Shown one piece after another: positions 37,861 through 64,000 of a stretch of DNA of 64,000 nt (positions are counted from its first letter, which is position 1; every line of letters starts with the position of its first letter). A model generated the notes under the pieces. It ran no database searches, was not told the DNA's origin, and worked only from the letters and a program-made list of their open reading frames with translations. This stretch comes from Pachyseris speciosa (taxonomy: Eukaryota > Cnidaria > Anthozoa > Scleractinia > Pachyseridae), in contig JAEMWC010000258.1 in the NCBI GenBank assembly GCA_016490735.1, forward strand, positions 732,501-796,500, in the 5' to 3' direction. A program made the position numbers and the translations under genes.

Positions 37861-37864
37861 ATGG

Positions 37865-37945: not shown

Positions 37946-37975
37946 GCGCCCACGAGCAATACCGCTAGCCATTTT

Positions 37976-38007
<32 letters not shown>

Positions 38008-39378: not shown

Positions 39379-39740
39379 TTTATAAGTAAGTTATCGAGCC
39401 ATTTTCCACTACAGAAGCTCCCAGGCTAGCATCATAAAGCTAGAATGGAGAGTAGAGGCAAACCTCTGAAGGAACCCAGAAGTGAGAGATAATCTCAAAG
39501 CGAATGGAACGCCAAAATGGCACCAAACGACTGAATTTATTTCTCTGGCCGTTCTGTAAATGGATTCTAGGGACTAACGAGGCAACTTTGGGAACATTTG
39601 ACTTGCAAAGAACACAACGGGTAGCATATTTTACCAGTTGGTCCCTATGGTTCGACACTTATAAAAAAAAACTCCAGCAAATGAAGATGGCGTGACTTCC
39701 ATTTCGCCGTGGTATCCAAATTACCCAGAATGCAATTGGG
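39379..39740 (+). repeat. Dispersed TTTATAAG repeat, copy 3, at the left edge of the tRNA array
   Basis: It begins 'tttataagtaagttatcgag', with 'catcataaagct', 'tctggccgttctgtaaatgg' and 'gttcgacacttataaaa' in the order seen at 32511-32830. From 39601 onward it is identical to the array units. Before 39601 it differs from the corresponding 40-base stretch in each unit. The array boundary therefore falls inside this repeat. Confidence 0.8.
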
Positions 39741-39935
39741 GCGCCAAAGAGGAAAGCAGAGTCTTTCAAAAGTGGCTCAAGTCAAATGGCTGATTGCTCG
39801 ACTCGATATAGGCGTGAGAGGCAAAAGTGAAGATAAATGCTTAGTCATTTGCTTCAAAGTGTTTTACAATTTAAATCTAAACCGGGTTAGTGAAGGAAAA
39901 GAGAATGGTTAAAACGCTAAGTAGGATAACGAGTT

Positions 39936-40008
39936 GCCCGGTTAGCTCAGTCGGTAGAGCATCAGACTTTTAATCTGAGGGTCATGGGTTCAAGTCCCAT
40001 ATCGGGCG
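39936..40008 (+). tRNA. tRNA-Lys-TTT: tRNA-Lys(TTT), unit 1
   Basis: Seventy-three nt, starting GCCCGGTTAGCTCAG. The acceptor stem GCCCGGT pairs with ATCGGGC, discriminator G. The anticodon loop ACTTTTAAT carries anticodon TTT. The T arm has GGTTCAAGTCC, an exact B-box match, and the A box is TAGCTCAGTCGG. It closely matches the standard animal tRNA-Lys(TTT), differing mainly in the T stem. No intron. Pol III terminators TTTT (40022-40025) and TTTTT (40029-40033) follow. It reads AAA (and AAG by wobble) in cytosolic translation. Confidence 0.97.
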
Positions 40009-40021
40009 ACAAAAGTCTGTA

Positions 40022-40033
40022 TTTTGACTTTTT
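40022..40033 (+). terminator. Pol III terminators of tRNA-Lys (unit 1 shown)
   Basis: TTTT and then TTTTT lie 14 and 21 bases after the tRNA-Lys 3' end. The same pair follows every tRNA-Lys in the array, so the two tRNAs of a unit are probably separate transcripts. The 385-bp spacer also argues against a shared precursor. Confidence 0.8.
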
Positions 40034-40393
40034 GGTGACATGGTTTGATTTCCAACGTAAAAAGAAAAAGACATCTTAGAAAGCAGATCGATCAAATAAT
40101 CCCAGGAATAAACTCCAAGAAAAAAACAGGCGATCTTAAGAAGTGGCACCCTTAAATCCTAGATTTGATAACAGCTTGATGAGGAAACCCGCTAGTACTC
40201 ACGGCTTTCCAATGGCAAGATAAATATCTGTATCACTTTAATCACTCGTTTCCTTAGGCAAGACCTAAAATTCAAATTCAAATTACGTACAATTAGTTCG
40301 CGTTTCATCCATGGCAATGCAAGAAATATCTTTTTAGTACTGAAGAGGGACATGATAAAAATAATAGTTGCCTTTATTCTGTAGCTGTAAGGT

Positions 40394-40479
40394 GCCTCGT
40401 TAGCGCAGTAGGCAGCGCGTCAGTCTCATAATCCAAAGTAGAAATCTGAAGGTCGTGAGTTCGATCCTCACACGGGGCA
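40394..40479 (+). tRNA. tRNA-Met-CAT: Elongator tRNA-Met(CAT) with 13-nt intron, unit 1
   Basis: Eighty-six nt unspliced, 73 nt mature. The acceptor GCCTCGT pairs with ACGGGGC, discriminator A. The A box is TAGCGCAGTAGG and the B box GAGTTCGATCC. T-loop TTCGATC and lack of initiator features make it the elongator form. Anticodon CAT is at 40427-40429, followed by A37. The intron ATCCAAAGTAGAA at 40431-40443 sits at the canonical 37/38 site, and removal restores a normal anticodon stem. A six-T terminator is at 40482-40487. The gene is 385 bp downstream of the tRNA-Lys and on the same strand. Confidence 0.95.
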
Positions 40480-40481
40480 CA

Positions 40482-40487
40482 TTTTTT
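40482..40487 (+). terminator. Pol III terminator of tRNA-Met (unit 1 shown)
   Basis: Six T begin three bases after the tRNA-Met 3' end and are repeated in every unit, giving a very short 3' trailer. Confidence 0.85.
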
Positions 40488-40868
40488 AACCTTTCTTTCA
40501 CCAATTGCATGCTCAGCAATTTTGGCGAGATTTAACTTGCAAAGAACACAACGGGTAGCATATTTTACCAGTTGGTCCCTATGGTTCGACACTTATAAAA
40601 AAAACTCCAGCAAATGAAGATGGCGTGACTTCCATTTCGCCGTGGTATCCAAATTACCCAGAATGCAATTGGGGCGCCAAAGAGGAAAGCAGAGTCTTTC
40701 AAAAGTGGCTCAAGTCAAATGGCTGATTGCTCGACTCGATATAGGCGTGAGAGGCAAAAGTGAAGATAAATGCTTAGTCATTTGCTTCAAAGTGTTTTAC
40801 AATTTAAATCTAAACCGGGTTAGTGAAGGAAAAGAGAATGGTTAAAACGCTAAGTAGGATAACGAGTT

Positions 40869-40941
40869 GCCCGGTTAGCTCAGTCGGTAGAGCATCAGAC
40901 TTTTAATCTGAGGGTCATGGGTTCAAGTCCCATATCGGGCG
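40869..40941 (+). tRNA. tRNA-Lys-TTT: tRNA-Lys(TTT), unit 2
   Basis: Reads the same as the unit 1 gene. Confidence 0.97.
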
Positions 40942-41326
40942 ACAAAAGTCTGTATTTTGACTTTTTGGTGACATGGTTTGATTTCCAACGTAAAAAGAAA
41001 AAGACATCTTAGAAAGCAGATCGATCAAATAATCCCAGGAATAAACTCCAAGAAAAAAACAGGCGATCTTAAGAAGTGGCACCCTTAAATCCTAGATTTG
41101 ATAACAGCTTGATGAGGAAACCCGCTAGTACTCACGGCTTTCCAATGGCAAGATAAATATCTGTATCACTTTAATCACTCGTTTCCTTAGGCAAGACCTA
41201 AAATTCAAATTCAAATTACGTACAATTAGTTCGCGTTTCATCCATGGCAATGCAAGAAATATCTTTTTAGTACTGAAGAGGGACATGATAAAAATAATAG
41301 TTGCCTTTATTCTGTAGCTGTAAGGT

Positions 41327-41412
41327 GCCTCGTTAGCGCAGTAGGCAGCGCGTCAGTCTCATAATCCAAAGTAGAAATCTGAAGGTCGTGAGTTCGATCC
41401 TCACACGGGGCA
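41327..41412 (+). tRNA. tRNA-Met-CAT: tRNA-Met(CAT) with intron, unit 2
   Basis: Same 86-nt sequence as unit 1; intron at 41364-41376. Confidence 0.95.
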
Positions 41413-41801
41413 CATTTTTTAACCTTTCTTTCACCAATTGCATGCTCAGCAATTTTGGCGAGATTTAACTTGCAAAGAACACAACGGGTAGCATATTTTA
41501 CCAGTTGGTCCCTATGGTTCGACACTTATAAAAAAAACTCCAGCAAATGAAGATGGCGTGACTTCCATTTCGCCGTGGTATCCAAATTACCCAGAATGCA
41601 ATTGGGGCGCCAAAGAGGAAAGCAGAGTCTTTCAAAAGTGGCTCAAGTCAAATGGCTGATTGCTCGACTCGATATAGGCGTGAGAGGCAAAAGTGAAGAT
41701 AAATGCTTAGTCATTTGCTTCAAAGTGTTTTACAATTTAAATCTAAACCGGGTTAGTGAAGGAAAAGAGAATGGTTAAAACGCTAAGTAGGATAACGAGT
41801 T

Positions 41802-41874
41802 GCCCGGTTAGCTCAGTCGGTAGAGCATCAGACTTTTAATCTGAGGGTCATGGGTTCAAGTCCCATATCGGGCG
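41802..41874 (+). tRNA. tRNA-Lys-TTT: tRNA-Lys(TTT), unit 3
   Basis: Same as unit 1. This is the last unit with A in the spacer motif 'ccaggaataaac'. Confidence 0.97.
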
Positions 41875-42259
41875 ACAAAAGTCTGTATTTTGACTTTTTG
41901 GTGACATGGTTTGATTTCCAACGTAAAAAGAAAAAGACATCTTAGAAAGCAGATCGATCAAATAATCCCAGGAATAAACTCCAAGAAAAAAACAGGCGAT
42001 CTTAAGAAGTGGCACCCTTAAATCCTAGATTTGATAACAGCTTGATGAGGAAACCCGCTAGTACTCACGGCTTTCCAATGGCAAGATAAATATCTGTATC
42101 ACTTTAATCACTCGTTTCCTTAGGCAAGACCTAAAATTCAAATTCAAATTACGTACAATTAGTTCGCGTTTCATCCATGGCAATGCAAGAAATATCTTTT
42201 TAGTACTGAAGAGGGACATGATAAAAATAATAGTTGCCTTTATTCTGTAGCTGTAAGGT

Positions 42260-42345
42260 GCCTCGTTAGCGCAGTAGGCAGCGCGTCAGTCTCATAATCC
42301 AAAGTAGAAATCTGAAGGTCGTGAGTTCGATCCTCACACGGGGCA
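42260..42345 (+). tRNA. tRNA-Met-CAT: tRNA-Met(CAT) with intron, unit 3
   Basis: Same as unit 1; intron at 42297-42309. Confidence 0.95.
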
Positions 42346-42734
42346 CATTTTTTAACCTTTCTTTCACCAATTGCATGCTCAGCAATTTTGGCGAGATTTA
42401 ACTTGCAAAGAACACAACGGGTAGCATATTTTACCAGTTGGTCCCTATGGTTCGACACTTATAAAAAAAACTCCAGCAAATGAAGATGGCGTGACTTCCA
42501 TTTCGCCGTGGTATCCAAATTACCCAGAATGCAATTGGGGCGCCAAAGAGGAAAGCAGAGTCTTTCAAAAGTGGCTCAAGTCAAATGGCTGATTGCTCGA
42601 CTCGATATAGGCGTGAGAGGCAAAAGTGAAGATAAATGCTTAGTCATTTGCTTCAAAGTGTTTTACAATTTAAATCTAAACCGGGTTAGTGAAGGAAAAG
42701 AGAATGGTTAAAACGCTAAGTAGGATAACGAGTT

Positions 42735-42807
42735 GCCCGGTTAGCTCAGTCGGTAGAGCATCAGACTTTTAATCTGAGGGTCATGGGTTCAAGTCCCATA
42801 TCGGGCG
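42735..42807 (+). tRNA. tRNA-Lys-TTT: tRNA-Lys(TTT), unit 4
   Basis: Gene unchanged. The downstream spacer has the G variant at 42907 and one A fewer in the poly-A run near 42920. Confidence 0.97.
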
Positions 42808-43191
42808 ACAAAAGTCTGTATTTTGACTTTTTGGTGACATGGTTTGATTTCCAACGTAAAAAGAAAAAGACATCTTAGAAAGCAGATCGATCAAATAATC
42901 CCAGGAGTAAACTCCAAGAAAAAACAGGCGATCTTAAGAAGTGGCACCCTTAAATCCTAGATTTGATAACAGCTTGATGAGGAAACCCGCTAGTACTCAC
43001 GGCTTTCCAATGGCAAGATAAATATCTGTATCACTTTAATCACTCGTTTCCTTAGGCAAGACCTAAAATTCAAATTCAAATTACGTACAATTAGTTCGCG
43101 TTTCATCCATGGCAATGCAAGAAATATCTTTTTAGTACTGAAGAGGGACATGATAAAAATAATAGTTGCCTTTATTCTGTAGCTGTAAGGT

Positions 43192-43277
43192 GCCTCGTTA
43201 GCGCAGTAGGCAGCGCGTCAGTCTCATAATCCAAAGTAGAAATCTGAAGGTCGTGAGTTCGATCCTCACACGGGGCA
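43192..43277 (+). tRNA. tRNA-Met-CAT: tRNA-Met(CAT) with intron, unit 4
   Basis: Same as unit 1; intron at 43229-43241. Confidence 0.95.
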
Positions 43278-43666
43278 CATTTTTTAACCTTTCTTTCACC
43301 AATTGCATGCTCAGCAATTTTGGCGAGATTTAACTTGCAAAGAACACAACGGGTAGCATATTTTACCAGTTGGTCCCTATGGTTCGACACTTATAAAAAA
43401 AACTCCAGCAAATGAAGATGGCGTGACTTCCATTTCGCCGTGGTATCCAAATTACCCAGAATGCAATTGGGGCGCCAAAGAGGAAAGCAGAGTCTTTCAA
43501 AAGTGGCTCAAGTCAAATGGCTGATTGCTCGACTCGATATAGGCGTGAGAGGCAAAAGTGAAGATAAATGCTTAGTCATTTGCTTCAAAGTGTTTTACAA
43601 TTTAAATCTAAACCGGGTTAGTGAAGGAAAAGAGAATGGTTAAAACGCTAAGTAGGATAACGAGTT

Positions 43667-43739
43667 GCCCGGTTAGCTCAGTCGGTAGAGCATCAGACTT
43701 TTAATCTGAGGGTCATGGGTTCAAGTCCCATATCGGGCG
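43667..43739 (+). tRNA. tRNA-Lys-TTT: tRNA-Lys(TTT), unit 5
   Basis: Same as unit 1. Confidence 0.97.
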
Positions 43740-44124
43740 ACAAAAGTCTGTATTTTGACTTTTTGGTGACATGGTTTGATTTCCAACGTAAAAAGAAAAA
43801 GACATCTTAGAAAGCAGATCGATCAAATAATCCCAGGAGTAAACTCCAAGAAAAAAACAGGCGATCTTAAGAAGTGGCACCCTTAAATCCTAGATTTGAT
43901 AACAGCTTGATGAGGAAACCCGCTAGTACTCACGGCTTTCCAATGGCAAGATAAATATCTGTATCACTTTAATCACTCGTTTCCTTAGGCAAGACCTAAA
44001 ATTCAAATTCAAATTACGTACAATTAGTTCGCGTTTCATCCATGGCAATGCAAGAAATATCTTTTTAGTACTGAAGAGGGACATGATAAAAATAATAGTT
44101 GCCTTTATTCTGTAGCTGTAAGGT

Positions 44125-44210
44125 GCCTCGTTAGCGCAGTAGGCAGCGCGTCAGTCTCATAATCCAAAGTAGAAATCTGAAGGTCGTGAGTTCGATCCTC
44201 ACACGGGGCA
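44125..44210 (+). tRNA. tRNA-Met-CAT: tRNA-Met(CAT) with intron, unit 5
   Basis: Same as unit 1; intron at 44162-44174. Confidence 0.95.
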
Positions 44211-44600
44211 CATTTTTTAACCTTTCTTTCACCAATTGCATGCTCAGCAATTTTGGCGAGATTTAACTTGCAAAGAACACAACGGGTAGCATATTTTACC
44301 AGTTGGTCCCTATGGTTCGACACTTATAAAAAAAACTCCAGCAAATGAAGATGGCGTGACTTCCATTTCGCCGTGGTATCCAAATTACCCAGAATGCAAT
44401 TGGGGCGCCAAAGAGGAAAGCAGAGTCTTTCAAAAGTGGCTCAAGTCAAATGGCTGATTGCTCGACTCGATATAGGCGTGAGAGGCAAAAGTGAAGATAA
44501 ATGCTTAGTCATTTGCTTCAAAGTGTTTTACAATTTAAATCTAAACCGGGTTAGTGAAGGAAAAGAGAATGGTTAAAAACGCTAAGTAGGATAACGAGTT

Positions 44601-44673
44601 GCCCGGTTAGCTCAGTCGGTAGAGCATCAGACTTTTAATCTGAGGGTCATGGGTTCAAGTCCCATATCGGGCG
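44601..44673 (+). tRNA. tRNA-Lys-TTT: tRNA-Lys(TTT), unit 6
   Basis: Gene unchanged. One extra A lies in 'ggttaaaaacgc' about 22 bases upstream. Confidence 0.97.
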
Positions 44674-45058
44674 ACAAAAGTCTGTATTTTGACTTTTTGG
44701 TGACATGGTTTGATTTCCAACGTAAAAAGAAAAAGACATCTTAGAAAGCAGATCGATCAAATAATCCCAGGAGTAAACTCCAAGAAAAAAACAGGCGATC
44801 TTAAGAAGTGGCACCCTTAAATCCTAGATTTGATAACAGCTTGATGAGGAAACCCGCTAGTACTCACGGCTTTCCAATGGCAAGATAAATATCTGTATCA
44901 CTTTAATCACTCGTTTCCTTAGGCAAGACCTAAAATTCAAATTCAAATTACGTACAATTAGTTCGCGTTTCATCCATGGCAATGCAAGAAATATCTTTTT
45001 AGTACTGAAGAGGGACATGATAAAAATAATAGTTGCCTTTATTCTGTAGCTGTAAGGT

Positions 45059-45144
45059 GCCTCGTTAGCGCAGTAGGCAGCGCGTCAGTCTCATAATCCA
45101 AAGTAGAAATCTGAAGGTCGTGAGTTCGATCCTCACACGGGGCA
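45059..45144 (+). tRNA. tRNA-Met-CAT: tRNA-Met(CAT) with intron, unit 6
   Basis: Same as unit 1; intron at 45096-45108. The next repeat fragment has seven A instead of eight in ATAAAA. Confidence 0.95.
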
Positions 45145-45532
45145 CATTTTTTAACCTTTCTTTCACCAATTGCATGCTCAGCAATTTTGGCGAGATTTAA
45201 CTTGCAAAGAACACAACGGGTAGCATATTTTACCAGTTGGTCCCTATGGTTCGACACTTATAAAAAAACTCCAGCAAATGAAGATGGCGTGACTTCCATT
45301 TCGCCGTGGTATCCAAATTACCCAGAATGCAATTGGGGCGCCAAAGAGGAAAGCAGAGTCTTTCAAAAGTGGCTCAAGTCAAATGGCTGATTGCTCGACT
45401 CGATATAGGCGTGAGAGGCAAAAGTGAAGATAAATGCTTAGTCATTTGCTTCAAAGTGTTTTACAATTTAAATCTAAACCGGGTTAGTGAAGGAAAAGAG
45501 AATGGTTAAAACGCTAAGTAGGATAACGAGTT

Positions 45533-45605
45533 GCCCGGTTAGCTCAGTCGGTAGAGCATCAGACTTTTAATCTGAGGGTCATGGGTTCAAGTCCCATATC
45601 GGGCG
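45533..45605 (+). tRNA. tRNA-Lys-TTT: tRNA-Lys(TTT), unit 7
   Basis: Gene unchanged. The downstream spacer has an extra A in 'attcaaaattcaaa' near 45870. Confidence 0.97.
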
Positions 45606-45991
45606 ACAAAAGTCTGTATTTTGACTTTTTGGTGACATGGTTTGATTTCCAACGTAAAAAGAAAAAGACATCTTAGAAAGCAGATCGATCAAATAATCCC
45701 AGGAGTAAACTCCAAGAAAAAAACAGGCGATCTTAAGAAGTGGCACCCTTAAATCCTAGATTTGATAACAGCTTGATGAGGAAACCCGCTAGTACTCACG
45801 GCTTTCCAATGGCAAGATAAATATCTGTATCACTTTAATCACTCGTTTCCTTAGGCAAGACCTAAAATTCAAAATTCAAATTACGTACAATTAGTTCGCG
45901 TTTCATCCATGGCAATGCAAGAAATATCTTTTTAGTACTGAAGAGGGACATGATAAAAATAATAGTTGCCTTTATTCTGTAGCTGTAAGGT

Positions 45992-46077
45992 GCCTCGTTA
46001 GCGCAGTAGGCAGCGCGTCAGTCTCATAATCCAAAGTAGAAATCTGAAGGTCGTGAGTTCGATCCTCACACGGGGCA
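45992..46077 (+). tRNA. tRNA-Met-CAT: tRNA-Met(CAT) with intron, unit 7
   Basis: Same as unit 1; intron at 46029-46041. Confidence 0.95.
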
Positions 46078-46466
46078 CATTTTTTAACCTTTCTTTCACC
46101 AATTGCATGCTCAGCAATTTTGGCGAGATTTAACTTGCAAAGAACACAACGGGTAGCATATTTTACCAGTTGGTCCCTATGGTTCGACACTTATAAAAAA
46201 AACTCCAGCAAATGAAGATGGCGTGACTTCCATTTCGCCGTGGTATCCAAATTACCCAGAATGCAATTGGGGCGCCAAAGAGGAAAGCAGAGTCTTTCAA
46301 AAGTGGCTCAAGTCAAATGGCTGATTGCTCGACTCGATATAGGCGTGAGAGGCAAAAGTGAAGATAAATGCTTAGTCATTTGCTTCAAAGTGTTTTACAA
46401 TTTAAATCTAAACCGGGTTAGTGAAGGAAAAGAGAATGGTTAAAACGCTAAGTAGGATAACGAGTT

Positions 46467-46539
46467 GCCCGGTTAGCTCAGTCGGTAGAGCATCAGACTT
46501 TTAATCTGAGGGTCATGGGTTCAAGTCCCATATCGGGCG
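46467..46539 (+). tRNA. tRNA-Lys-TTT: tRNA-Lys(TTT), unit 8
   Basis: Same as unit 1. Confidence 0.97.
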
Positions 46540-46924
46540 ACAAAAGTCTGTATTTTGACTTTTTGGTGACATGGTTTGATTTCCAACGTAAAAAGAAAAA
46601 GACATCTTAGAAAGCAGATCGATCAAATAATCCCAGGAGTAAACTCCAAGAAAAAAACAGGCGATCTTAAGAAGTGGCACCCTTAAATCCTAGATTTGAT
46701 AACAGCTTGATGAGGAAACCCGCTAGTACTCACGGCTTTCCAATGGCAAGATAAATATCTGTATCACTTTAATCACTCGTTTCCTTAGGCAAGACCTAAA
46801 ATTCAAATTCAAATTACGTACAATTAGTTCGCGTTTCATCCATGGCAATGCAAGAAATATCTTTTTAGTACTGAAGAGGGACATGATAAAAATAATAGTT
46901 GCCTTTATTCTGTAGCTGTAAGGT

Positions 46925-47010
46925 GCCTCGTTAGCGCAGTAGGCAGCGCGTCAGTCTCATAATCCAAAGTAGAAATCTGAAGGTCGTGAGTTCGATCCTC
47001 ACACGGGGCA
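46925..47010 (+). tRNA. tRNA-Met-CAT: tRNA-Met(CAT) with intron, unit 8
   Basis: Same as unit 1; intron at 46962-46974. Confidence 0.95.
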
Positions 47011-47399
47011 CATTTTTTAACCTTTCTTTCACCAATTGCATGCTCAGCAATTTTGGCGAGATTTAACTTGCAAAGAACACAACGGGTAGCATATTTTACC
47101 AGTTGGTCCCTATGGTTCGACACTTATAAAAAAAACTCCAGCAAATGAAGATGGCGTGACTTCCATTTCGCCGTGGTATCCAAATTACCCAGAATGCAAT
47201 TGGGGCGCCAAAGAGGAAAGCAGAGTCTTTCAAAAGTGGCTCAAGTCAAATGGCTGATTGCTCGACTCGATATAGGCGTGAGAGGCAAAAGTGAAGATAA
47301 ATGCTTAGTCATTTGCTTCAAAGTGTTTTACAATTTAAATCTAAACCGGGTTAGTGAAGGAAAAGAGAATGGTTAAAACGCTAAGTAGGATAACGAGTT

Positions 47400-47472
47400 G
47401 CCCGGTTAGCTCAGTCGGTAGAGCATCAGACTTTTAATCTGAGGGTCATGGGTTCAAGTCCCATATCGGGCG
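47400..47472 (+). tRNA. tRNA-Lys-TTT: tRNA-Lys(TTT), unit 9
   Basis: Same as unit 1. Confidence 0.97.
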
Positions 47473-47857
47473 ACAAAAGTCTGTATTTTGACTTTTTGGT
47501 GACATGGTTTGATTTCCAACGTAAAAAGAAAAAGACATCTTAGAAAGCAGATCGATCAAATAATCCCAGGAGTAAACTCCAAGAAAAAAACAGGCGATCT
47601 TAAGAAGTGGCACCCTTAAATCCTAGATTTGATAACAGCTTGATGAGGAAACCCGCTAGTACTCACGGCTTTCCAATGGCAAGATAAATATCTGTATCAC
47701 TTTAATCACTCGTTTCCTTAGGCAAGACCTAAAATTCAAATTCAAATTACGTACAATTAGTTCGCGTTTCATCCATGGCAATGCAAGAAATATCTTTTTA
47801 GTACTGAAGAGGGACATGATAAAAATAATAGTTGCCTTTATTCTGTAGCTGTAAGGT

Positions 47858-47943
47858 GCCTCGTTAGCGCAGTAGGCAGCGCGTCAGTCTCATAATCCAA
47901 AGTAGAAATCTGAAGGTCGTGAGTTCGATCCTCACACGGGGCA
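47858..47943 (+). tRNA. tRNA-Met-CAT: tRNA-Met(CAT) with intron, unit 9
   Basis: Same as unit 1; intron at 47895-47907. Confidence 0.95.
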
Positions 47944-48332
47944 CATTTTTTAACCTTTCTTTCACCAATTGCATGCTCAGCAATTTTGGCGAGATTTAAC
48001 TTGCAAAGAACACAACGGGTAGCATATTTTACCAGTTGGTCCCTATGGTTCGACACTTATAAAAAAAACTCCAGCAAATGAAGATGGCGTGACTTCCATT
48101 TCGCCGTGGTATCCAAATTACCCAGAATGCAATTGGGGCGCCAAAGAGGAAAGCAGAGTCTTTCAAAAGTGGCTCAAGTCAAATGGCTGATTGCTCGACT
48201 CGATATAGGCGTGAGAGGCAAAAGTGAAGATAAATGCTTAGTCATTTGCTTCAAAGTGTTTTACAATTTAAATCTAAACCGGGTTAGTGAAGGAAAAGAG
48301 AATGGTTAAAACGCTAAGTAGGATAACGAGTT

Positions 48333-48405
48333 GCCCGGTTAGCTCAGTCGGTAGAGCATCAGACTTTTAATCTGAGGGTCATGGGTTCAAGTCCCATATC
48401 GGGCG
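48333..48405 (+). tRNA. tRNA-Lys-TTT: tRNA-Lys(TTT), unit 10
   Basis: Gene unchanged. The spacer after it lacks 20 bp in total, near 48658-48690. Confidence 0.97.
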
Positions 48406-48770
48406 ACAAAAGTCTGTATTTTGACTTTTTGGTGACATGGTTTGATTTCCAACGTAAAAAGAAAAAGACATCTTAGAAAGCAGATCGATCAAATAATCCC
48501 AGGAGTAAACTCCAAGAAAAAAACAGGCGATCTTAAGAAGTGGCACCCTTAAATCCTAGATTTGATAACAGCTTGATGAGGAAACCCGCTAGTACTCACG
48601 GCTTTCCAATGGCAAGATAAATATCTGTATCACTTTAATCACTCGTTTCCTTAGGCAAGCAAATTACGTACAATTAGTTCGTTTTCCATGGCAATGCAAG
48701 AAATATCTTTTTAGTACTGAAGAGGGACATGATAAAAATAATAGTTGCCTTTATTCTGTAGCTGTAAGGT

Positions 48771-48856
48771 GCCTCGTTAGCGCAGTAGGCAGCGCGTCAG
48801 TCTCATAATCCAAAGTAGAAATCTGAAGGTCGTGAGTTCGATCCTCACACGGGGCA
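48771..48856 (+). tRNA. tRNA-Met-CAT: tRNA-Met(CAT) with intron, unit 10
   Basis: Gene unchanged; intron at 48808-48820. It lies 365 bp after its tRNA-Lys instead of 385. Confidence 0.95.
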
Positions 48857-49245
48857 CATTTTTTAACCTTTCTTTCACCAATTGCATGCTCAGCAATTTT
48901 GGCGAGATTTAACTTGCAAAGAACACAACGGGTAGCATATTTTACCAGTTGGTCCCTATGGTTCGACACTTATAAAAAAAACTCCAGCAAATGAAGATGG
49001 CGTGACTTCCATTTCGCCGTGGTATCCAAATTACCCAGAATGCAATTGGGGCGCCAAAGAGGAAAGCAGAGTCTTTCAAAAGTGGCTCAAGTCAAATGGC
49101 TGATTGCTCGACTCGATATAGGCGTGAGAGGCAAAAGTGAAGATAAATGCTTAGTCATTTGCTTCAAAGTGTTTTACAATTTAAATCTAAACCGGGTTAG
49201 TGAAGGAAAAGAGAATGGTTAAAACGCTAAGTAGGATAACGAGTT

Positions 49246-55301: not shown

Positions 55302-55387
55302 GCCTCGTTAGCGCAGTAGGCAGCGCGTCAGTCTCATAATCCAAAGTAGAAATCTGAAGGTCGTGAGTTCGATCCTCACACGGGGCA
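55302..55387 (+). tRNA. tRNA-Met-CAT: tRNA-Met(CAT) with intron, unit 17
   Basis: Same as unit 1. Confidence 0.95.
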
Positions 55388-55776
55388 CATTTTTTAACCT
55401 TTCTTTCACCAATTGCATGCTCAGCAATTTTGGCGAGATTTAACTTGCAAAGAACACAACGGGTAGCATATTTTACCAGTTGGTCCCTATGGTTCGACAC
55501 TTATAAAAAAAACTCCAGCAAATGAAGATGGCGTGACTTCCATTTCGCCGTGGTATCCAAATTACCCAGAATGCAATTGGGGCGCCAAAGAGGAAAGCAG
55601 AGTCTTTCAAAAGTGGCTCAAGTCAAATGGCTGATTGCTCGACTCGATATAGGCGTGAGAGGCAAAAGTGAAGATAAATGCTTAGTCATTTGCTTCAAAG
55701 TGTTTTACAATTTAAATCTAAACCGGGTTAGTGAAGGAAAAGAGAATGGTTAAAACGCTAAGTAGGATAACGAGTT

Positions 55777-55849
55777 GCCCGGTTAGCTCAGTCGGTAGAG
55801 CATCAGACTTTTAATCTGAGGGTCATGGGTTCAAGTCCCATATCGGGCG
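55777..55849 (+). tRNA. tRNA-Lys-TTT: tRNA-Lys(TTT), unit 18
   Basis: Same as unit 1. Confidence 0.97.
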
Positions 55850-56234
55850 ACAAAAGTCTGTATTTTGACTTTTTGGTGACATGGTTTGATTTCCAACGTA
55901 AAAAGAAAAAGACATCTTAGAAAGCAGATCGATCAAATAATCCCAGGAGTAAACTCCAAGAAAAAAACAGGCGATCTTAAGAAGTGGCACCCTTAAATCC
56001 TAGATTTGATAACAGCTTGATGAGGAAACCCGCTAGTACTCACGGCTTTCCAATGGCAAGATAAATATCTGTATCACTTTAATCACTCGTTTCCTTAGGC
56101 AAGACCTAAAATTCAAATTCAAATTACGTACAATTAGTTCGCGTTTCATCCATGGCAATGCAAGAAATATCTTTTTAGTACTGAAGAGGGACATGATAAA
56201 AATAATAGTTGCCTTTATTCTGTAGCTGTAAGGT

Positions 56235-56320
56235 GCCTCGTTAGCGCAGTAGGCAGCGCGTCAGTCTCATAATCCAAAGTAGAAATCTGAAGGTCGTGAG
56301 TTCGATCCTCACACGGGGCA
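56235..56320 (+). tRNA. tRNA-Met-CAT: tRNA-Met(CAT) with intron, unit 18
   Basis: Same as unit 1. Confidence 0.95.
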
Positions 56321-56709
56321 CATTTTTTAACCTTTCTTTCACCAATTGCATGCTCAGCAATTTTGGCGAGATTTAACTTGCAAAGAACACAACGGGTAGC
56401 ATATTTTACCAGTTGGTCCCTATGGTTCGACACTTATAAAAAAAACTCCAGCAAATGAAGATGGCGTGACTTCCATTTCGCCGTGGTATCCAAATTACCC
56501 AGAATGCAATTGGGGCGCCAAAGAGGAAAGCAGAGTCTTTCAAAAGTGGCTCAAGTCAAATGGCTGATTGCTCGACTCGATATAGGCGTGAGAGGCAAAA
56601 GTGAAGATAAATGCTTAGTCATTTGCTTCAAAGTGTTTTACAATTTAAATCTAAACCGGGTTAGTGAAGGAAAAGAGAATGGTTAAAACGCTAAGTAGGA
56701 TAACGAGTT

Positions 56710-56782
56710 GCCCGGTTAGCTCAGTCGGTAGAGCATCAGACTTTTAATCTGAGGGTCATGGGTTCAAGTCCCATATCGGGCG
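56710..56782 (+). tRNA. tRNA-Lys-TTT: tRNA-Lys(TTT), unit 19
   Basis: Same as unit 1. Confidence 0.97.
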
Positions 56783-57167
56783 ACAAAAGTCTGTATTTTG
56801 ACTTTTTGGTGACATGGTTTGATTTCCAACGTAAAAAGAAAAAGACATCTTAGAAAGCAGATCGATCAAATAATCCCAGGAGTAAACTCCAAGAAAAAAA
56901 CAGGCGATCTTAAGAAGTGGCACCCTTAAATCCTAGATTTGATAACAGCTTGATGAGGAAACCCGCTAGTACTCACGGCTTTCCAATGGCAAGATAAATA
57001 TCTGTATCACTTTAATCACTCGTTTCCTTAGGCAAGACCTAAAATTCAAATTCAAATTACGTACAATTAGTTCGCGTTTCATCCATGGCAATGCAAGAAA
57101 TATCTTTTTAGTACTGAAGAGGGACATGATAAAAATAATAGTTGCCTTTATTCTGTAGCTGTAAGGT

Positions 57168-57253
57168 GCCTCGTTAGCGCAGTAGGCAGCGCGTCAGTCT
57201 CATAATCCAAAGTAGAAATCTGAAGGTCGTGAGTTCGATCCTCACACGGGGCA
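57168..57253 (+). tRNA. tRNA-Met-CAT: tRNA-Met(CAT) with intron, unit 19
   Basis: Same as unit 1. Confidence 0.95.
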
Positions 57254-57642
57254 CATTTTTTAACCTTTCTTTCACCAATTGCATGCTCAGCAATTTTGGC
57301 GAGATTTAACTTGCAAAGAACACAACGGGTAGCATATTTTACCAGTTGGTCCCTATGGTTCGACACTTATAAAAAAAACTCCAGCAAATGAAGATGGCGT
57401 GACTTCCATTTCGCCGTGGTATCCAAATTACCCAGAATGCAATTGGGGCGCCAAAGAGGAAAGCAGAGTCTTTCAAAAGTGGCTCAAGTCAAATGGCTGA
57501 TTGCTCGACTCGATATAGGCGTGAGAGGCAAAAGTGAAGATAAATGCTTAGTCATTTGCTTCAAAGTGTTTTACAATTTAAATCTAAACCGGGTTAGTGA
57601 AGGAAAAGAGAATGGTTAAAACGCTAAGTAGGATAACGAGTT

Positions 57643-57715
57643 GCCCGGTTAGCTCAGTCGGTAGAGCATCAGACTTTTAATCTGAGGGTCATGGGTTCAA
57701 GTCCCATATCGGGCG
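57643..57715 (+). tRNA. tRNA-Lys-TTT: tRNA-Lys(TTT), unit 20
   Basis: Same as unit 1. Confidence 0.97.
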
Positions 57716-58100
57716 ACAAAAGTCTGTATTTTGACTTTTTGGTGACATGGTTTGATTTCCAACGTAAAAAGAAAAAGACATCTTAGAAAGCAGATCGATC
57801 AAATAATCCCAGGAGTAAACTCCAAGAAAAAAACAGGCGATCTTAAGAAGTGGCACCCTTAAATCCTAGATTTGATAACAGCTTGATGAGGAAACCCGCT
57901 AGTACTCACGGCTTTCCAATGGCAAGATAAATATCTGTATCACTTTAATCACTCGTTTCCTTAGGCAAGACCTAAAATTCAAATTCAAATTACGTACAAT
58001 TAGTTCGCGTTTCATCCATGGCAATGCAAGAAATATCTTTTTAGTACTGAAGAGGGACATGATAAAAATAATAGTTGCCTTTATTCTGTAGCTGTAAGGT

Positions 58101-58186
58101 GCCTCGTTAGCGCAGTAGGCAGCGCGTCAGTCTCATAATCCAAAGTAGAAATCTGAAGGTCGTGAGTTCGATCCTCACACGGGGCA
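58101..58186 (+). tRNA. tRNA-Met-CAT: tRNA-Met(CAT) with intron, unit 20
   Basis: Same as unit 1. Confidence 0.95.
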
Positions 58187-58575
58187 CATTTTTTAACCTT
58201 TCTTTCACCAATTGCATGCTCAGCAATTTTGGCGAGATTTAACTTGCAAAGAACACAACGGGTAGCATATTTTACCAGTTGGTCCCTATGGTTCGACACT
58301 TATAAAAAAAACTCCAGCAAATGAAGATGGCGTGACTTCCATTTCGCCGTGGTATCCAAATTACCCAGAATGCAATTGGGGCGCCAAAGAGGAAAGCAGA
58401 GTCTTTCAAAAGTGGCTCAAGTCAAATGGCTGATTGCTCGACTCGATATAGGCGTGAGAGGCAAAAGTGAAGATAAATGCTTAGTCATTTGCTTCAAAGT
58501 GTTTTACAATTTAAATCTAAACCGGGTTAGTGAAGGAAAAGAGAATGGTTAAAACGCTAAGTAGGATAACGAGTT

Positions 58576-58648
58576 GCCCGGTTAGCTCAGTCGGTAGAGC
58601 ATCAGACTTTTAATCTGAGGGTCATGGGTTCAAGTCCCATATCGGGCG
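58576..58648 (+). tRNA. tRNA-Lys-TTT: tRNA-Lys(TTT), unit 21
   Basis: Same as unit 1. Confidence 0.97.
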
Positions 58649-59033
58649 ACAAAAGTCTGTATTTTGACTTTTTGGTGACATGGTTTGATTTCCAACGTAA
58701 AAAGAAAAAGACATCTTAGAAAGCAGATCGATCAAATAATCCCAGGAGTAAACTCCAAGAAAAAAACAGGCGATCTTAAGAAGTGGCACCCTTAAATCCT
58801 AGATTTGATAACAGCTTGATGAGGAAACCCGCTAGTACTCACGGCTTTCCAATGGCAAGATAAATATCTGTATCACTTTAATCACTCGTTTCCTTAGGCA
58901 AGACCTAAAATTCAAATTCAAATTACGTACAATTAGTTCGCGTTTCATCCATGGCAATGCAAGAAATATCTTTTTAGTACTGAAGAGGGACATGATAAAA
59001 ATAATAGTTGCCTTTATTCTGTAGCTGTAAGGT

Positions 59034-59119
59034 GCCTCGTTAGCGCAGTAGGCAGCGCGTCAGTCTCATAATCCAAAGTAGAAATCTGAAGGTCGTGAGT
59101 TCGATCCTCACACGGGGCA
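59034..59119 (+). tRNA. tRNA-Met-CAT: tRNA-Met(CAT) with intron, unit 21
   Basis: Same as unit 1. Confidence 0.95.
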
Positions 59120-59508
59120 CATTTTTTAACCTTTCTTTCACCAATTGCATGCTCAGCAATTTTGGCGAGATTTAACTTGCAAAGAACACAACGGGTAGCA
59201 TATTTTACCAGTTGGTCCCTATGGTTCGACACTTATAAAAAAAACTCCAGCAAATGAAGATGGCGTGACTTCCATTTCGCCGTGGTATCCAAATTACCCA
59301 GAATGCAATTGGGGCGCCAAAGAGGAAAGCAGAGTCTTTCAAAAGTGGCTCAAGTCAAATGGCTGATTGCTCGACTCGATATAGGCGTGAGAGGCAAAAG
59401 TGAAGATAAATGCTTAGTCATTTGCTTCAAAGTGTTTTACAATTTAAATCTAAACCGGGTTAGTGAAGGAAAAGAGAATGGTTAAAACGCTAAGTAGGAT
59501 AACGAGTT

Positions 59509-59581
59509 GCCCGGTTAGCTCAGTCGGTAGAGCATCAGACTTTTAATCTGAGGGTCATGGGTTCAAGTCCCATATCGGGCG
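59509..59581 (+). tRNA. tRNA-Lys-TTT: tRNA-Lys(TTT), unit 22
   Basis: Same as unit 1. Confidence 0.97.
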
Positions 59582-59966
59582 ACAAAAGTCTGTATTTTGA
59601 CTTTTTGGTGACATGGTTTGATTTCCAACGTAAAAAGAAAAAGACATCTTAGAAAGCAGATCGATCAAATAATCCCAGGAGTAAACTCCAAGAAAAAAAC
59701 AGGCGATCTTAAGAAGTGGCACCCTTAAATCCTAGATTTGATAACAGCTTGATGAGGAAACCCGCTAGTACTCACGGCTTTCCAATGGCAAGATAAATAT
59801 CTGTATCACTTTAATCACTCGTTTCCTTAGGCAAGACCTAAAATTCAAATTCAAATTACGTACAATTAGTTCGCGTTTCATCCATGGCAATGCAAGAAAT
59901 ATCTTTTTAGTACTGAAGAGGGACATGATAAAAATAATAGTTGCCTTTATTCTGTAGCTGTAAGGT

Positions 59967-60052
59967 GCCTCGTTAGCGCAGTAGGCAGCGCGTCAGTCTC
60001 ATAATCCAAAGTAGAAATCTGAAGGTCGTGAGTTCGATCCTCACACGGGGCA
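59967..60052 (+). tRNA. tRNA-Met-CAT: tRNA-Met(CAT) with intron, unit 22
   Basis: Same as unit 1. Confidence 0.95.
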
Positions 60053-60441
60053 CATTTTTTAACCTTTCTTTCACCAATTGCATGCTCAGCAATTTTGGCG
60101 AGATTTAACTTGCAAAGAACACAACGGGTAGCATATTTTACCAGTTGGTCCCTATGGTTCGACACTTATAAAAAAAACTCCAGCAAATGAAGATGGCGTG
60201 ACTTCCATTTCGCCGTGGTATCCAAATTACCCAGAATGCAATTGGGGCGCCAAAGAGGAAAGCAGAGTCTTTCAAAAGTGGCTCAAGTCAAATGGCTGAT
60301 TGCTCGACTCGATATAGGCGTGAGAGGCAAAAGTGAAGATAAATGCTTAGTCATTTGCTTCAAAGTGTTTTACAATTTAAATCTAAACCGGGTTAGTGAA
60401 GGAAAAGAGAATGGTTAAAACGCTAAGTAGGATAACGAGTT

Positions 60442-60514
60442 GCCCGGTTAGCTCAGTCGGTAGAGCATCAGACTTTTAATCTGAGGGTCATGGGTTCAAG
60501 TCCCATATCGGGCG
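60442..60514 (+). tRNA. tRNA-Lys-TTT: tRNA-Lys(TTT), unit 23
   Basis: Same as unit 1. Confidence 0.97.
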
Positions 60515-60899
60515 ACAAAAGTCTGTATTTTGACTTTTTGGTGACATGGTTTGATTTCCAACGTAAAAAGAAAAAGACATCTTAGAAAGCAGATCGATCA
60601 AATAATCCCAGGAGTAAACTCCAAGAAAAAAACAGGCGATCTTAAGAAGTGGCACCCTTAAATCCTAGATTTGATAACAGCTTGATGAGGAAACCCGCTA
60701 GTACTCACGGCTTTCCAATGGCAAGATAAATATCTGTATCACTTTAATCACTCGTTTCCTTAGGCAAGACCTAAAATTCAAATTCAAATTACGTACAATT
60801 AGTTCGCGTTTCATCCATGGCAATGCAAGAAATATCTTTTTAGTACTGAAGAGGGACATGATAAAAATAATAGTTGCCTTTATTCTGTAGCTGTAAGGT

Positions 60900-60985
60900 G
60901 CCTCGTTAGCGCAGTAGGCAGCGCGTCAGTCTCATAATCCAAAGTAGAAATCTGAAGGTCGTGAGTTCGATCCTCACACGGGGCA
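60900..60985 (+). tRNA. tRNA-Met-CAT: tRNA-Met(CAT) with intron, unit 23
   Basis: Same as unit 1. Confidence 0.95.
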
Positions 60986-61374
60986 CATTTTTTAACCTTT
61001 CTTTCACCAATTGCATGCTCAGCAATTTTGGCGAGATTTAACTTGCAAAGAACACAACGGGTAGCATATTTTACCAGTTGGTCCCTATGGTTCGACACTT
61101 ATAAAAAAAACTCCAGCAAATGAAGATGGCGTGACTTCCATTTCGCCGTGGTATCCAAATTACCCAGAATGCAATTGGGGCGCCAAAGAGGAAAGCAGAG
61201 TCTTTCAAAAGTGGCTCAAGTCAAATGGCTGATTGCTCGACTCGATATAGGCGTGAGAGGCAAAAGTGAAGATAAATGCTTAGTCATTTGCTTCAAAGTG
61301 TTTTACAATTTAAATCTAAACCGGGTTAGTGAAGGAAAAGAGAATGGTTAAAACGCTAAGTAGGATAACGAGTT

Positions 61375-61447
61375 GCCCGGTTAGCTCAGTCGGTAGAGCA
61401 TCAGACTTTTAATCTGAGGGTCATGGGTTCAAGTCCCATATCGGGCG
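61375..61447 (+). tRNA. tRNA-Lys-TTT: tRNA-Lys(TTT), unit 24
   Basis: Same as unit 1. Confidence 0.97.
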
Positions 61448-61832
61448 ACAAAAGTCTGTATTTTGACTTTTTGGTGACATGGTTTGATTTCCAACGTAAA
61501 AAGAAAAAGACATCTTAGAAAGCAGATCGATCAAATAATCCCAGGAGTAAACTCCAAGAAAAAAACAGGCGATCTTAAGAAGTGGCACCCTTAAATCCTA
61601 GATTTGATAACAGCTTGATGAGGAAACCCGCTAGTACTCACGGCTTTCCAATGGCAAGATAAATATCTGTATCACTTTAATCACTCGTTTCCTTAGGCAA
61701 GACCTAAAATTCAAATTCAAATTACGTACAATTAGTTCGCGTTTCATCCATGGCAATGCAAGAAATATCTTTTTAGTACTGAAGAGGGACATGATAAAAA
61801 TAATAGTTGCCTTTATTCTGTAGCTGTAAGGT

Positions 61833-61918
61833 GCCTCGTTAGCGCAGTAGGCAGCGCGTCAGTCTCATAATCCAAAGTAGAAATCTGAAGGTCGTGAGTT
61901 CGATCCTCACACGGGGCA
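61833..61918 (+). tRNA. tRNA-Met-CAT: tRNA-Met(CAT) with intron, unit 24
   Basis: Same as unit 1. Confidence 0.95.
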
Positions 61919-62307
61919 CATTTTTTAACCTTTCTTTCACCAATTGCATGCTCAGCAATTTTGGCGAGATTTAACTTGCAAAGAACACAACGGGTAGCAT
62001 ATTTTACCAGTTGGTCCCTATGGTTCGACACTTATAAAAAAAACTCCAGCAAATGAAGATGGCGTGACTTCCATTTCGCCGTGGTATCCAAATTACCCAG
62101 AATGCAATTGGGGCGCCAAAGAGGAAAGCAGAGTCTTTCAAAAGTGGCTCAAGTCAAATGGCTGATTGCTCGACTCGATATAGGCGTGAGAGGCAAAAGT
62201 GAAGATAAATGCTTAGTCATTTGCTTCAAAGTGTTTTACAATTTAAATCTAAACCGGGTTAGTGAAGGAAAAGAGAATGGTTAAAACGCTAAGTAGGATA
62301 ACGAGTT

Positions 62308-62380
62308 GCCCGGTTAGCTCAGTCGGTAGAGCATCAGACTTTTAATCTGAGGGTCATGGGTTCAAGTCCCATATCGGGCG
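62308..62380 (+). tRNA. tRNA-Lys-TTT: tRNA-Lys(TTT), unit 25
   Basis: Same as unit 1. Confidence 0.97.
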
Positions 62381-62765
62381 ACAAAAGTCTGTATTTTGAC
62401 TTTTTGGTGACATGGTTTGATTTCCAACGTAAAAAGAAAAAGACATCTTAGAAAGCAGATCGATCAAATAATCCCAGGAGTAAACTCCAAGAAAAAAACA
62501 GGCGATCTTAAGAAGTGGCACCCTTAAATCCTAGATTTGATAACAGCTTGATGAGGAAACCCGCTAGTACTCACGGCTTTCCAATGGCAAGATAAATATC
62601 TGTATCACTTTAATCACTCGTTTCCTTAGGCAAGACCTAAAATTCAAATTCAAATTACGTACAATTAGTTCGCGTTTCATCCATGGCAATGCAAGAAATA
62701 TCTTTTTAGTACTGAAGAGGGACATGATAAAAATAATAGTTGCCTTTATTCTGTAGCTGTAAGGT

Positions 62766-62851
62766 GCCTCGTTAGCGCAGTAGGCAGCGCGTCAGTCTCA
62801 TAATCCAAAGTAGAAATCTGAAGGTCGTGAGTTCGATCCTCACACGGGGCA
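62766..62851 (+). tRNA. tRNA-Met-CAT: tRNA-Met(CAT) with intron, unit 25
   Basis: Same as unit 1. Confidence 0.95.
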
Positions 62852-63240
62852 CATTTTTTAACCTTTCTTTCACCAATTGCATGCTCAGCAATTTTGGCGA
62901 GATTTAACTTGCAAAGAACACAACGGGTAGCATATTTTACCAGTTGGTCCCTATGGTTCGACACTTATAAAAAAAACTCCAGCAAATGAAGATGGCGTGA
63001 CTTCCATTTCGCCGTGGTATCCAAATTACCCAGAATGCAATTGGGGCGCCAAAGAGGAAAGCAGAGTCTTTCAAAAGTGGCTCAAGTCAAATGGCTGATT
63101 GCTCGACTCGATATAGGCGTGAGAGGCAAAAGTGAAGATAAATGCTTAGTCATTTGCTTCAAAGTGTTTTACAATTTAAATCTAAACCGGGTTAGTGAAG
63201 GAAAAGAGAATGGTTAAAACGCTAAGTAGGATAACGAGTT

Positions 63241-63313
63241 GCCCGGTTAGCTCAGTCGGTAGAGCATCAGACTTTTAATCTGAGGGTCATGGGTTCAAGT
63301 CCCATATCGGGCG
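63241..63313 (+). tRNA. tRNA-Lys-TTT: tRNA-Lys(TTT), unit 26
   Basis: Same as unit 1. Confidence 0.97.
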
Positions 63314-63698
63314 ACAAAAGTCTGTATTTTGACTTTTTGGTGACATGGTTTGATTTCCAACGTAAAAAGAAAAAGACATCTTAGAAAGCAGATCGATCAA
63401 ATAATCCCAGGAGTAAACTCCAAGAAAAAAACAGGCGATCTTAAGAAGTGGCACCCTTAAATCCTAGATTTGATAACAGCTTGATGAGGAAACCCGCTAG
63501 TACTCACGGCTTTCCAATGGCAAGATAAATATCTGTATCACTTTAATCACTCGTTTCCTTAGGCAAGACCTAAAATTCAAATTCAAATTACGTACAATTA
63601 GTTCGCGTTTCATCCATGGCAATGCAAGAAATATCTTTTTAGTACTGAAGAGGGACATGATAAAAATAATAGTTGCCTTTATTCTGTAGCTGTAAGGT

Positions 63699-63784
63699 GC
63701 CTCGTTAGCGCAGTAGGCAGCGCGTCAGTCTCATAATCCAAAGTAGAAATCTGAAGGTCGTGAGTTCGATCCTCACACGGGGCA
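63699..63784 (+). tRNA. tRNA-Met-CAT: tRNA-Met(CAT) with intron, unit 26
   Basis: Same as unit 1; the last complete tRNA gene in the window. Confidence 0.95.
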
Positions 63785-64000
63785 CATTTTTTAACCTTTC
63801 TTTCACCAATTGCATGCTCAGCAATTTTGGCGAGATTTAACTTGCAAAGAACACAACGGGTAGCATATTTTACCAGTTGGTCCCTATGGTTCGACACTTA
63901 TAAAAAAAACTCCAGCAAATGAAGATGGCGTGACTTCCATTTCGCCGTGGTATCCAAATTACCCAGAATGCAATTGGGGCGCCAAAGAGGAAAGCAGAGT

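What the first reader, a model, noticed from the sequence alone, without database searches (positions are those of the whole stretch)
39601..64000. Array of at least 26 units pairing tRNA-Lys(TTT) with intron-bearing tRNA-Met(CAT)
Fifty-two tRNA genes in 24.2 kb, two isoacceptors per unit in fixed order and orientation, with spacers as conserved as the genes. Large tRNA clusters are known in several animals, but I do not recall a described Lys/Met tandem satellite of this type. Possible roles: raising dosage of two translation tRNAs, supplying tRNA fragments, or acting as a Pol III-bound chromatin domain. It may also be a neutral satellite that happens to carry tRNAs. The array continues beyond the window, so its true size is unknown.
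Basis: partly seen in the sequence, partly recalled or inferred. Interest (0 to 1): 0.85.

Follow-up and report, generated by a model that had tools for sequence, protein, structure and literature searches.

The report
Coral tRNA-Lys/tRNA-Met gene array
A stony coral's genome assembly carries at least 42 head-to-tail copies of a 933-base unit holding one lysine and one methionine tRNA gene, a real but known kind of repeat whose birth and decay can be partly read at its edges.

Summary
The window holds 26 tRNA-Lys(TTT) and 26 tRNA-Met(CAT) genes in units of about 933 bp. It lies in a 983.7-Mb, 2368-contig assembly, which matches Pachyseris speciosa by size and contig count. In window coordinates the array runs at least 40.4 kb, from 39582 to 80000, where held sequence turns to N. 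It has 42 exact Lys genes and 38 exact Met genes. Both genes look competent: full acceptor and T stems, A and B boxes, and in Met a 13-nt intron at 37/38 with the A-I pair. Thirty of 41 complete units are identical; variants sit only near the two ends. Each unit carries a truncated copy of a dispersed repeat whose 5' end is present at the array's left end. The junction looks like recombination between two copies of that repeat. Two related loci, one with a single Lys gene and one with about two decayed units, suggest how it arose. Tandem tRNA arrays with conserved spacers are published for Hydractinia, and tRNA arrays for Nematostella. This is a new member of that kind; function is untested.

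The parts
39366..39720 (+). Left-end copy of a dispersed repeat (family about 650-830 bp in nine comparisons), with its 5' end; the array's first partial unit begins inside it at about 39582
   Evidence: blastn/nhmmer to window 32505-32825 and 557-285; to repeat copy L013 at 80% over 501 bp, window 39366-39848; alignment with 10 genomic copies
39582..64000 (+). Tandem array inside the window: partial first unit, 25 complete units (Lys to Lys, mostly 933 bp), and unit 26 cut by the window end. It continues to window coordinate 80000 = G000:C258:812500
39936..40008 (+). tRNA-Lys(TTT) gene, first of 26 identical copies in the window (then about every 933 bp to 63241-63313)
   Evidence: ARAGORN, Rfam RF00005 74.6 bits, 7/7 acceptor and 5/5 T-stem pairs, A box TAGCTCAGTCGG, B box GGTTCAAGTCC
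40394..40479 (+). tRNA-Met(CAT) gene with 13-nt intron, first of 26 identical copies in the window (last 63699-63784)
   Evidence: ARAGORN, Rfam 54.1 bits, intron at 37/38 with C32-G(-3) A-I pair
40022..40033 (+). Pol III terminator-like T4 and T5 runs 3' of Lys (unit positions 88 and 95)
   Evidence: T-run scan of the unit
40482..40487 (+). Pol III terminator-like T6 run just 3' of Met (unit position 548)
   Evidence: T-run scan of the unit
40516..40781 (+). Truncated dispersed-repeat piece inside the unit (unit positions 582-847); its start, 582-604, marks the proposed recombination junction
   Evidence: 36 listed matches of about this stretch at 84-88% elsewhere in the genome, with 39 of 812 first-look candidates scored; 23/23 to the majority of 10 copies at 582-604, against 18/23 for the left flank
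48333..49245 (+). Unit 10, the shortest unit (913 bp): 20 bp missing in the Lys-to-Met spacer

Best explanation
It is a recently amplified tandem array of two Pol III genes in a stony coral. Shown: at least 42 units on one contig of the assembly, exact Lys genes in 42 of 42, exact Met genes in units 1-38, near-perfect identity inside and variants only near the ends. Shown: two related loci share stretches of the left flank; one has a single Lys gene and no Met in the matching stretch, the other about two decayed units. Inferred: a Met gene came to lie beside Lys; a copy of a dispersed repeat lay upstream of Lys and another downstream of Met; recombination between them gave the first tandem duplication; unequal exchange and gene conversion then expanded and homogenised it. 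Inferred, and less sure (about even odds): the genes are transcribed by Pol III from their internal A and B boxes and add to the tRNA-Lys(UUU) and elongator tRNA-Met pools, perhaps only from some units. The confidence given is for the array and its amplification and homogenisation, not for transcription.
For: Genes and unit identity. Gene competence: stems, A and B boxes, A-I pair, terminator-like T runs. Extent to 80000. Edge pattern: units 8, 9 and 11-38 identical; units 1-7, 10 and 39-42 variant. Junction: unit 582-604 is 23/23 to the majority of 10 repeat copies, the left flank 18/23, yet unit and flank agree at 329/329 aligned bases from 605 on (one A-run length difference set aside); in C830 the same comparison gives 22/23 and 19/23. 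Related loci: C830 shares stretches of window 34439-39934 at 93-97%; C1133 shares stretches of 33192-39934 at 85-91%, with Lys 73/73 and no Met in the matching stretch. Lys 73/73 in C1133 where the matched spacer is about 85% identical suggests constraint on Lys, unless conversion kept it (0.85^73 is about 7e-6, my arithmetic).
Against: No expression, Pol III binding or read-depth data. Inside the array genes and spacers are equally invariant, so selection on the genes is not shown there (P about 0.33 for six events, my arithmetic; 0.27 for seven as run). The two Met copies in C830 (one whole, one cut) are altered at about the spacer's rate. The junction result rests on 23 positions; a flank that simply diverged after duplication would also give 5 differences, though then 0 changes against the majority in the unit would be less expected. 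Twenty-eight identical units in a row (units 11-38, 26 kb) may be longer than the reads, so copy number could be wrong. The genome search scored 39 of 812 candidates, so other related loci may have been missed.
Confidence: 0.75

Rival explanations
1. A neutral satellite: unequal exchange amplified a stretch that happens to hold two tRNA genes, most or all copies are silent, and copy number drifts without effect on translation. (This and the next two are about function and can hold together with the amplification account.)
For: Spacers are as invariant as genes. In C830 both Met copies are altered, and the last four Met genes of the array are altered (three by inserts plus substitutions, one by substitutions alone) and persist. 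In Arabidopsis a comparable tandem tRNA array is silent in most tissues (PMC12308677, abstract and passages).
Against: The sequence that was homogenised is the competent one for both genes. Lys stays 73/73 in C1133 while the matched spacer is about 85% identical.
Confidence: 0.4
2. A dosage device: selection favoured many copies of tRNA-Lys(UUU) and elongator tRNA-Met, as in other multi-copy Pol III gene arrays.
For: 42 of 42 Lys and 38 of 42 Met genes are exact. Hydractinia has arrays of tRNAs for all 20 amino acids, as expected if array form is a general way of holding RNA genes.
Against: Why Lys and Met would be limiting is unexplained. Genome-wide Lys and Met gene numbers could not be obtained (searches unanswered). 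[quoted passage not shown]
Confidence: 0.3
3. An assembly artefact: one or a few real units were multiplied by the assembler.
For: 28 consecutive identical units; single-A length changes look like sequencing error; 5 of 7 Met changes in units 39-42 are A:T to C:G, which may be polishing error (my count).
Against: A substitution shared by units 1-3, a 20-bp deletion in unit 10, inserts in units 39, 40 and 42 with insert-free unit 41 between them. A second locus shows two units with the same junction. For Hydractinia a second assembly also shows arrays.
Confidence: 0.1
4. A chromatin element: the array acts as an insulator or Pol III-bound domain, as proposed for the human 1q23.3 tRNA repeat.
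For: tRNA genes can act as barriers; the human array binds CTCF and lies at a domain boundary (PMC4041453, abstract and passages).
Against: Nothing held here tests it. The unit is AT-rich (GC 0.40) with CpG near the flank level (0.87 against 0.91 observed/expected), unlike the GC-rich human unit.
Confidence: 0.1

Closest known systems
RNA-gene tandem arrays of Hydractinia and Nematostella (PMC11067881, section 14 and passages read; PMC2888827, passages read)
   Same: [quoted passage not shown] tRNA arrays also found in Nematostella, whose clusters are mostly of mixed tRNA pairs and include some of fifty or more genes
   Different: A stony coral, while the Hydractinia authors found no RNA arrays in cnidarian genomes other than Nematostella; a Lys/Met pair; a visible junction in a dispersed repeat
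Entamoeba tRNA gene arrays (PMC2652664, abstract and passages read)
   Same: Tandem units, many with more than one tRNA gene, thought to be homogenised by concerted evolution; the authors propose that a new gene first joins one unit
   Different: In E. histolytica almost all tRNA genes are arrayed and make up over 10% of the genome; in two species short tandem repeats lie between genes
Arabidopsis SYY cluster (PMC12308677, abstract and passages read)
   Same: Tandem units of two tRNA kinds, one with introns, a homogeneous core and more variable edges
   Different: Ser-Tyr-Tyr units with pseudogenes; silenced in most tissues and active in root-tip cells; no such data here
Human 1q23.3 tRNA VNTR (PMC4041453, abstract and passages read)
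   Same: Tandem array of a unit with several tRNA genes, 9-43 copies per allele
   Different: 7.3-kb GC-rich unit with five tRNA genes and CTCF sites
Xenopus laevis 3.18-kb tDNA repeat (recalled; not seen in the listing) and Bombyx silk-gland tRNA-Ala cluster (from a passage of PMC12308677)
   Same: Tandemly repeated animal tRNA genes
   Different: Other gene content; not compared by sequence

Membership tests
Cnidarian-type RNA-gene tandem array (PMC11067881) | Tens or more nearly identical, evenly spaced tRNA copies | tested here: met
   42 Lys genes; of 41 distances 34 are 933, four are 932 or 934, one 913, two 1318-1319
[quoted passage not shown]
   30 of 41 complete units identical, spacers included; spacers are about 386 and 388 bp in the standard unit
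Cnidarian-type RNA-gene tandem array (PMC11067881) | Not an assembly artefact (seen in a second assembly or species) | not testable with these tools
   One assembly held and no reads; a second locus with the same junction exists
Functional nuclear tRNA genes | Cloverleaf, A and B boxes, terminator | tested here: met
Functional nuclear tRNA genes | Intron at 37/38 with A-I pair (Met) | tested here: met
   13-nt intron, C32-G(-3); canonical position and A-I pair as in PMC4090602 (listing; passages)
Functional nuclear tRNA genes | Transcription and maturation | not testable with these tools
   No RNA data
SYY-like silenced, tissue-specific tDNA cluster | Methylated and silent except in certain cells | not testable with these tools
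   No methylation or expression data
Human-type CTCF-bound tRNA macrosatellite | GC-rich, CpG-rich unit | tested here: not met
   GC 0.40, CpG observed/expected 0.87 in the unit and 0.91 in the flank
tRNA-derived SINE satellite | Degenerate tRNA-like head fused to an unrelated body with a tail | tested here: not met
   Complete, competent tRNA genes; a SINE-like pair does occur elsewhere in the window

The most novel reading that the evidence does not exclude
The array is a conditional tRNA supply, silent in most cells and switched on in a secretory cell type of the coral, like the SYY cluster, with a copy number that differs between closely related Pachyseris lineages and shifts Lys(AAA) and Met decoding. 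In that reading the homogeneous core is kept intact by selection and the decayed edges are silent spare units.
Probability: 0.07. Interest if true: 0.75.

Novelty: new member of a known kind. Interest (0 to 1): 0.38.

Why it matters
Tandem tRNA arrays are known, but their start is seldom visible. Here three related loci in one genome (one Lys gene; about two decayed Lys/Met units; at least 42 units) and a junction inside a dispersed repeat give a testable account of birth, spread and decay at the edges. It also adds a stony coral to a group in which one published survey reported RNA arrays only in Hydractinia and Nematostella.

Tried and rejected
Other RNA genes in the unit: an Rfam search at relaxed threshold over 1944 bases gave only tRNA above gathering score; the weak hits (Plastid-ycf2, RMST_1, SNORD93, bxd_6) are far below theirs. 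Protein coding in the unit: the longest stop-free stretch in six frames of a trimer is 75 codons. Lys and Met halves as copies of one another: only short matches, such as 20 bp between the two anticodon regions. Related sequence in viral contigs: two exact-pattern scans for intron-bearing Met found nothing. The dispersed repeat as a known protein-coding element: no Pfam hit for the ORF at 32481-32921, which lies in one copy, and none of 3 candidate homologues reached E 0.001, so its class is unknown. C830 as the other haplotype of C258 rather than a duplicate: not settled; it shares stretches of window 34439-39934 at 93-97% and then stops, apart from one 346-bp match at 80%, and the table row in PMC10267220 lists 2.0-3.6% duplicated BUSCOs for this species. 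Genome-wide counts of Lys and Met genes: not obtained. Against the reading or awkward: Met in C830 is not conserved better than its spacer; the Met changes at the right end are oddly concentrated (see Noticed in passing); the three insert copies differ from one another more than the units around them do, which could mean polishing error.
Full report
WHAT IS THERE. ARAGORN (bacterial code setting) reports 52 tRNA genes on the + strand between 39935 and 63785, Lys(ttt) and an unnamed gene with anticodon 'ca' in strict alternation. Rfam's tRNA model matches all 52, Lys at 74.6 bits and the other at 54.1, with a gathering score of 29. The second gene was resolved by hand: leaving out a 13-nt intron gives a 73-nt tRNA with anticodon CAT; the intron lies between positions 37 and 38, and C32 can pair with the third intron base from the 3' site. 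From memory, the mature sequence is close to vertebrate elongator tRNA-Met, and Lys to vertebrate tRNA-Lys(UUU). Both have 7/7 acceptor and 5/5 T-stem pairs and recognisable A and B boxes. T runs follow both genes: T6 two bases after Met, T4 and T5 after Lys.

HOW REGULAR. In the window 26 of 26 Lys and 26 of 26 Met genes are identical, and 17 of 25 complete units are identical throughout. No ARAGORN gene lies in window 1-39934, and two lie in 16 other stretches totalling 93.5 kb of the same genome.

WHERE IT IS FROM. Of 78 hits to a thrombospondin-domain protein at 9011-9523, those that carry an organism name are stony corals (Orbicella, Oculina, Pocillopora). The genome search, when it answered, placed the window at G000:C258:732501-796500 in an assembly of 983,672,442 bases in 2368 contigs. 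A table row in PMC10267220 (one passage read; column heads not seen) lists Pachyseris speciosa with 984.4 and 2368. I take that as the species; it is an inference from two numbers.

TRUE SIZE. Adjacent sequence continues the array to window coordinate 80000; from 80001 the held sequence reads N. That gives at least 40.4 kb, 42 exact Lys genes and 38 exact Met genes. Thirty of 41 complete units are identical. The others are units 1-7 and 10 on the left and 39-41 on the right; unit 42 is cut by the N run and also variant. On the left: one substitution shared by units 1-3, one single-A length change in each of units 4-7, and a 20-bp deletion in unit 10. On the right: inserts of about 380 bp in the Met intron of units 39, 40 and 42, with one to four further changes in each of these units, and three substitutions in the Met gene of unit 41. 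For the 25 window units, six events that all fall in the first ten have P about 0.004. This is the pattern expected when exchange homogenises the middle and leaves the edges behind.

CAN SELECTION BE SEEN. Inside the array, no. Genes are 17% of the unit; with six events, none in a gene has P about 0.33 (my arithmetic; one search ran it for seven and gave 0.27). Between loci, partly: Lys is 73/73 in C1133 while matched spacer is about 85% identical, and 73/73 in two of three C830 copies (72/73 in the third); the two Met copies in C830, one whole and one cut, carry changes at about the spacer's rate. So Lys looks constrained, or kept by conversion, and Met in C830 does not.

HOW IT BEGAN. The unit contains, at 582-847, part of a dispersed repeat with 36 other listed matches of about this stretch at 84-88% identity; only 39 of 812 first-look candidates were scored, so the true number is larger. 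Ten copies were fetched: nine comparisons with L013 give matches of about 650-830 bp, eight of which start at the same 5' point. The left end of the array lies in a copy that has that 5' end (39366 onward), while the copies inside units start abruptly at about 582. At 582-604 the unit equals the majority of the ten copies at 23/23 positions and the left flank at 18/23; from 605 on, unit and left flank agree at 329 of 329 aligned bases, apart from one A-run length difference. In C830 the same comparison gives 22/23 and 19/23, and 317 of 326. I read this as recombination between an older copy upstream of Lys and a younger, 5'-truncated copy downstream of Met, which made the first tandem duplication before C258 and C830 separated. 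The alternative, that the flank diverged after a simple duplication, is less likely but the test rests on 23 positions. That the breakpoint lies inside the repeat holds either way.

A SERIES OF LOCI. C830 shares stretches of window 34439-39934 at 93-97%, with gaps on both sides, the largest an extra 7.4 kb in C830; it has one complete unit, partial units and an inverted piece, with three Lys genes and altered Met copies. C1133 shares stretches of window 33192-39934 at 85-91% (and one more at 77%), has one Lys gene, and its match to the unit ends about 25 bp before the Met gene. The order one Lys, then a Lys/Met pair, then an array is an inference; loss of Met in C1133 is possible, and other related loci may have been missed. 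C830 could be the other haplotype; then the array would differ from about two to at least 42 units between haplotypes.

WHAT IT DOES. Best-supported: competent genes of two tRNAs, multiplied by recombination, perhaps transcribed in part. Dosage, neutral satellite and chromatin roles remain open; nothing held here measures RNA, Pol III or copy number. The insert-bearing Met units at the right end show that damaged units are tolerated.

WHAT IS KNOWN. [quoted passage not shown] PMC2652664 (abstract and passages), PMC4041453 (abstract and passages) and PMC12308677 (abstract and passages) give the Entamoeba, human and Arabidopsis cases. Coral papers report many tRNAs: 6951 in Astrangia (PMC12005167, passages), 3144 in Lophelia (PMC10022433, passages), and in PMC11370458 (table passage) 23,498, 20,541 and 395 tRNA-class repeats in three species, which I take in the order Siderastrea, Dendrogyra, Colpophyllia from genome size. 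Supplementary tables were not available, so a Lys/Met array may already be listed somewhere. Verdict: new member of a known kind, with an unusually readable origin.

Noticed in passing
L010:1866-2262, 3186-3582, 5437-5832 (window coordinates 75866-79832): Inserts of about 380 bp in the Met intron of units 39, 40 and 42, with a T-rich tract, a GATGTA-repeat tail and a reading frame that resembles the C-terminus of a CR1/L2-type retrotransposon protein (my reading, no database search). Three of the last four units carry it; unit 41 between them does not.
   Followed up: partly
Met genes of units 39-42 (window coordinates about 75826-79875): By my count, insert differences set aside, 7 of 10 independent changes in these units fall in the 86-bp Met gene (binomial P about 5e-6, grouping chosen after seeing the data); 5 of the 7 are A:T to C:G. 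Lys in the same units has none. Polishing error, conversion from another Met gene or a mutation hotspot could explain it.
   Followed up: partly
window 12217-12444 (+) and 20959-21153 (-): Two copies of a SINE-like sequence whose head matches the A-box region of tRNA-Lys (95.8% over 24 bp and 84% over 31 bp) and has a B-box-like motif.
   Followed up: partly
window 11875-11919 (-): Type I hammerhead ribozyme just above Rfam's gathering score (34.7 against 34), amid short repeats at 11509-14057.
   Followed up: no
window 8951-9526, 20423-20863, 4734-4964: Three related stretches. The first codes for thrombospondin type 1 domains above Pfam's cut-off, the second matches below it, the third was not tested. 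Relatives in stony corals.
   Followed up: no
window 24479-25110: A 211-bp tandem repeat of three copies, 99% alike, with 21-bp repeats inside it.
   Followed up: no
L011:8847-8921 (-) and L012:8125-8198 (+): A tRNA-Thr(agt) gene lies about 2.3 and 3.2 kb from the nearest Lys gene in the two related loci; the two match at 79% over 108 bp, little more than the gene. None was found in the window, L010 or L026.
   Followed up: no
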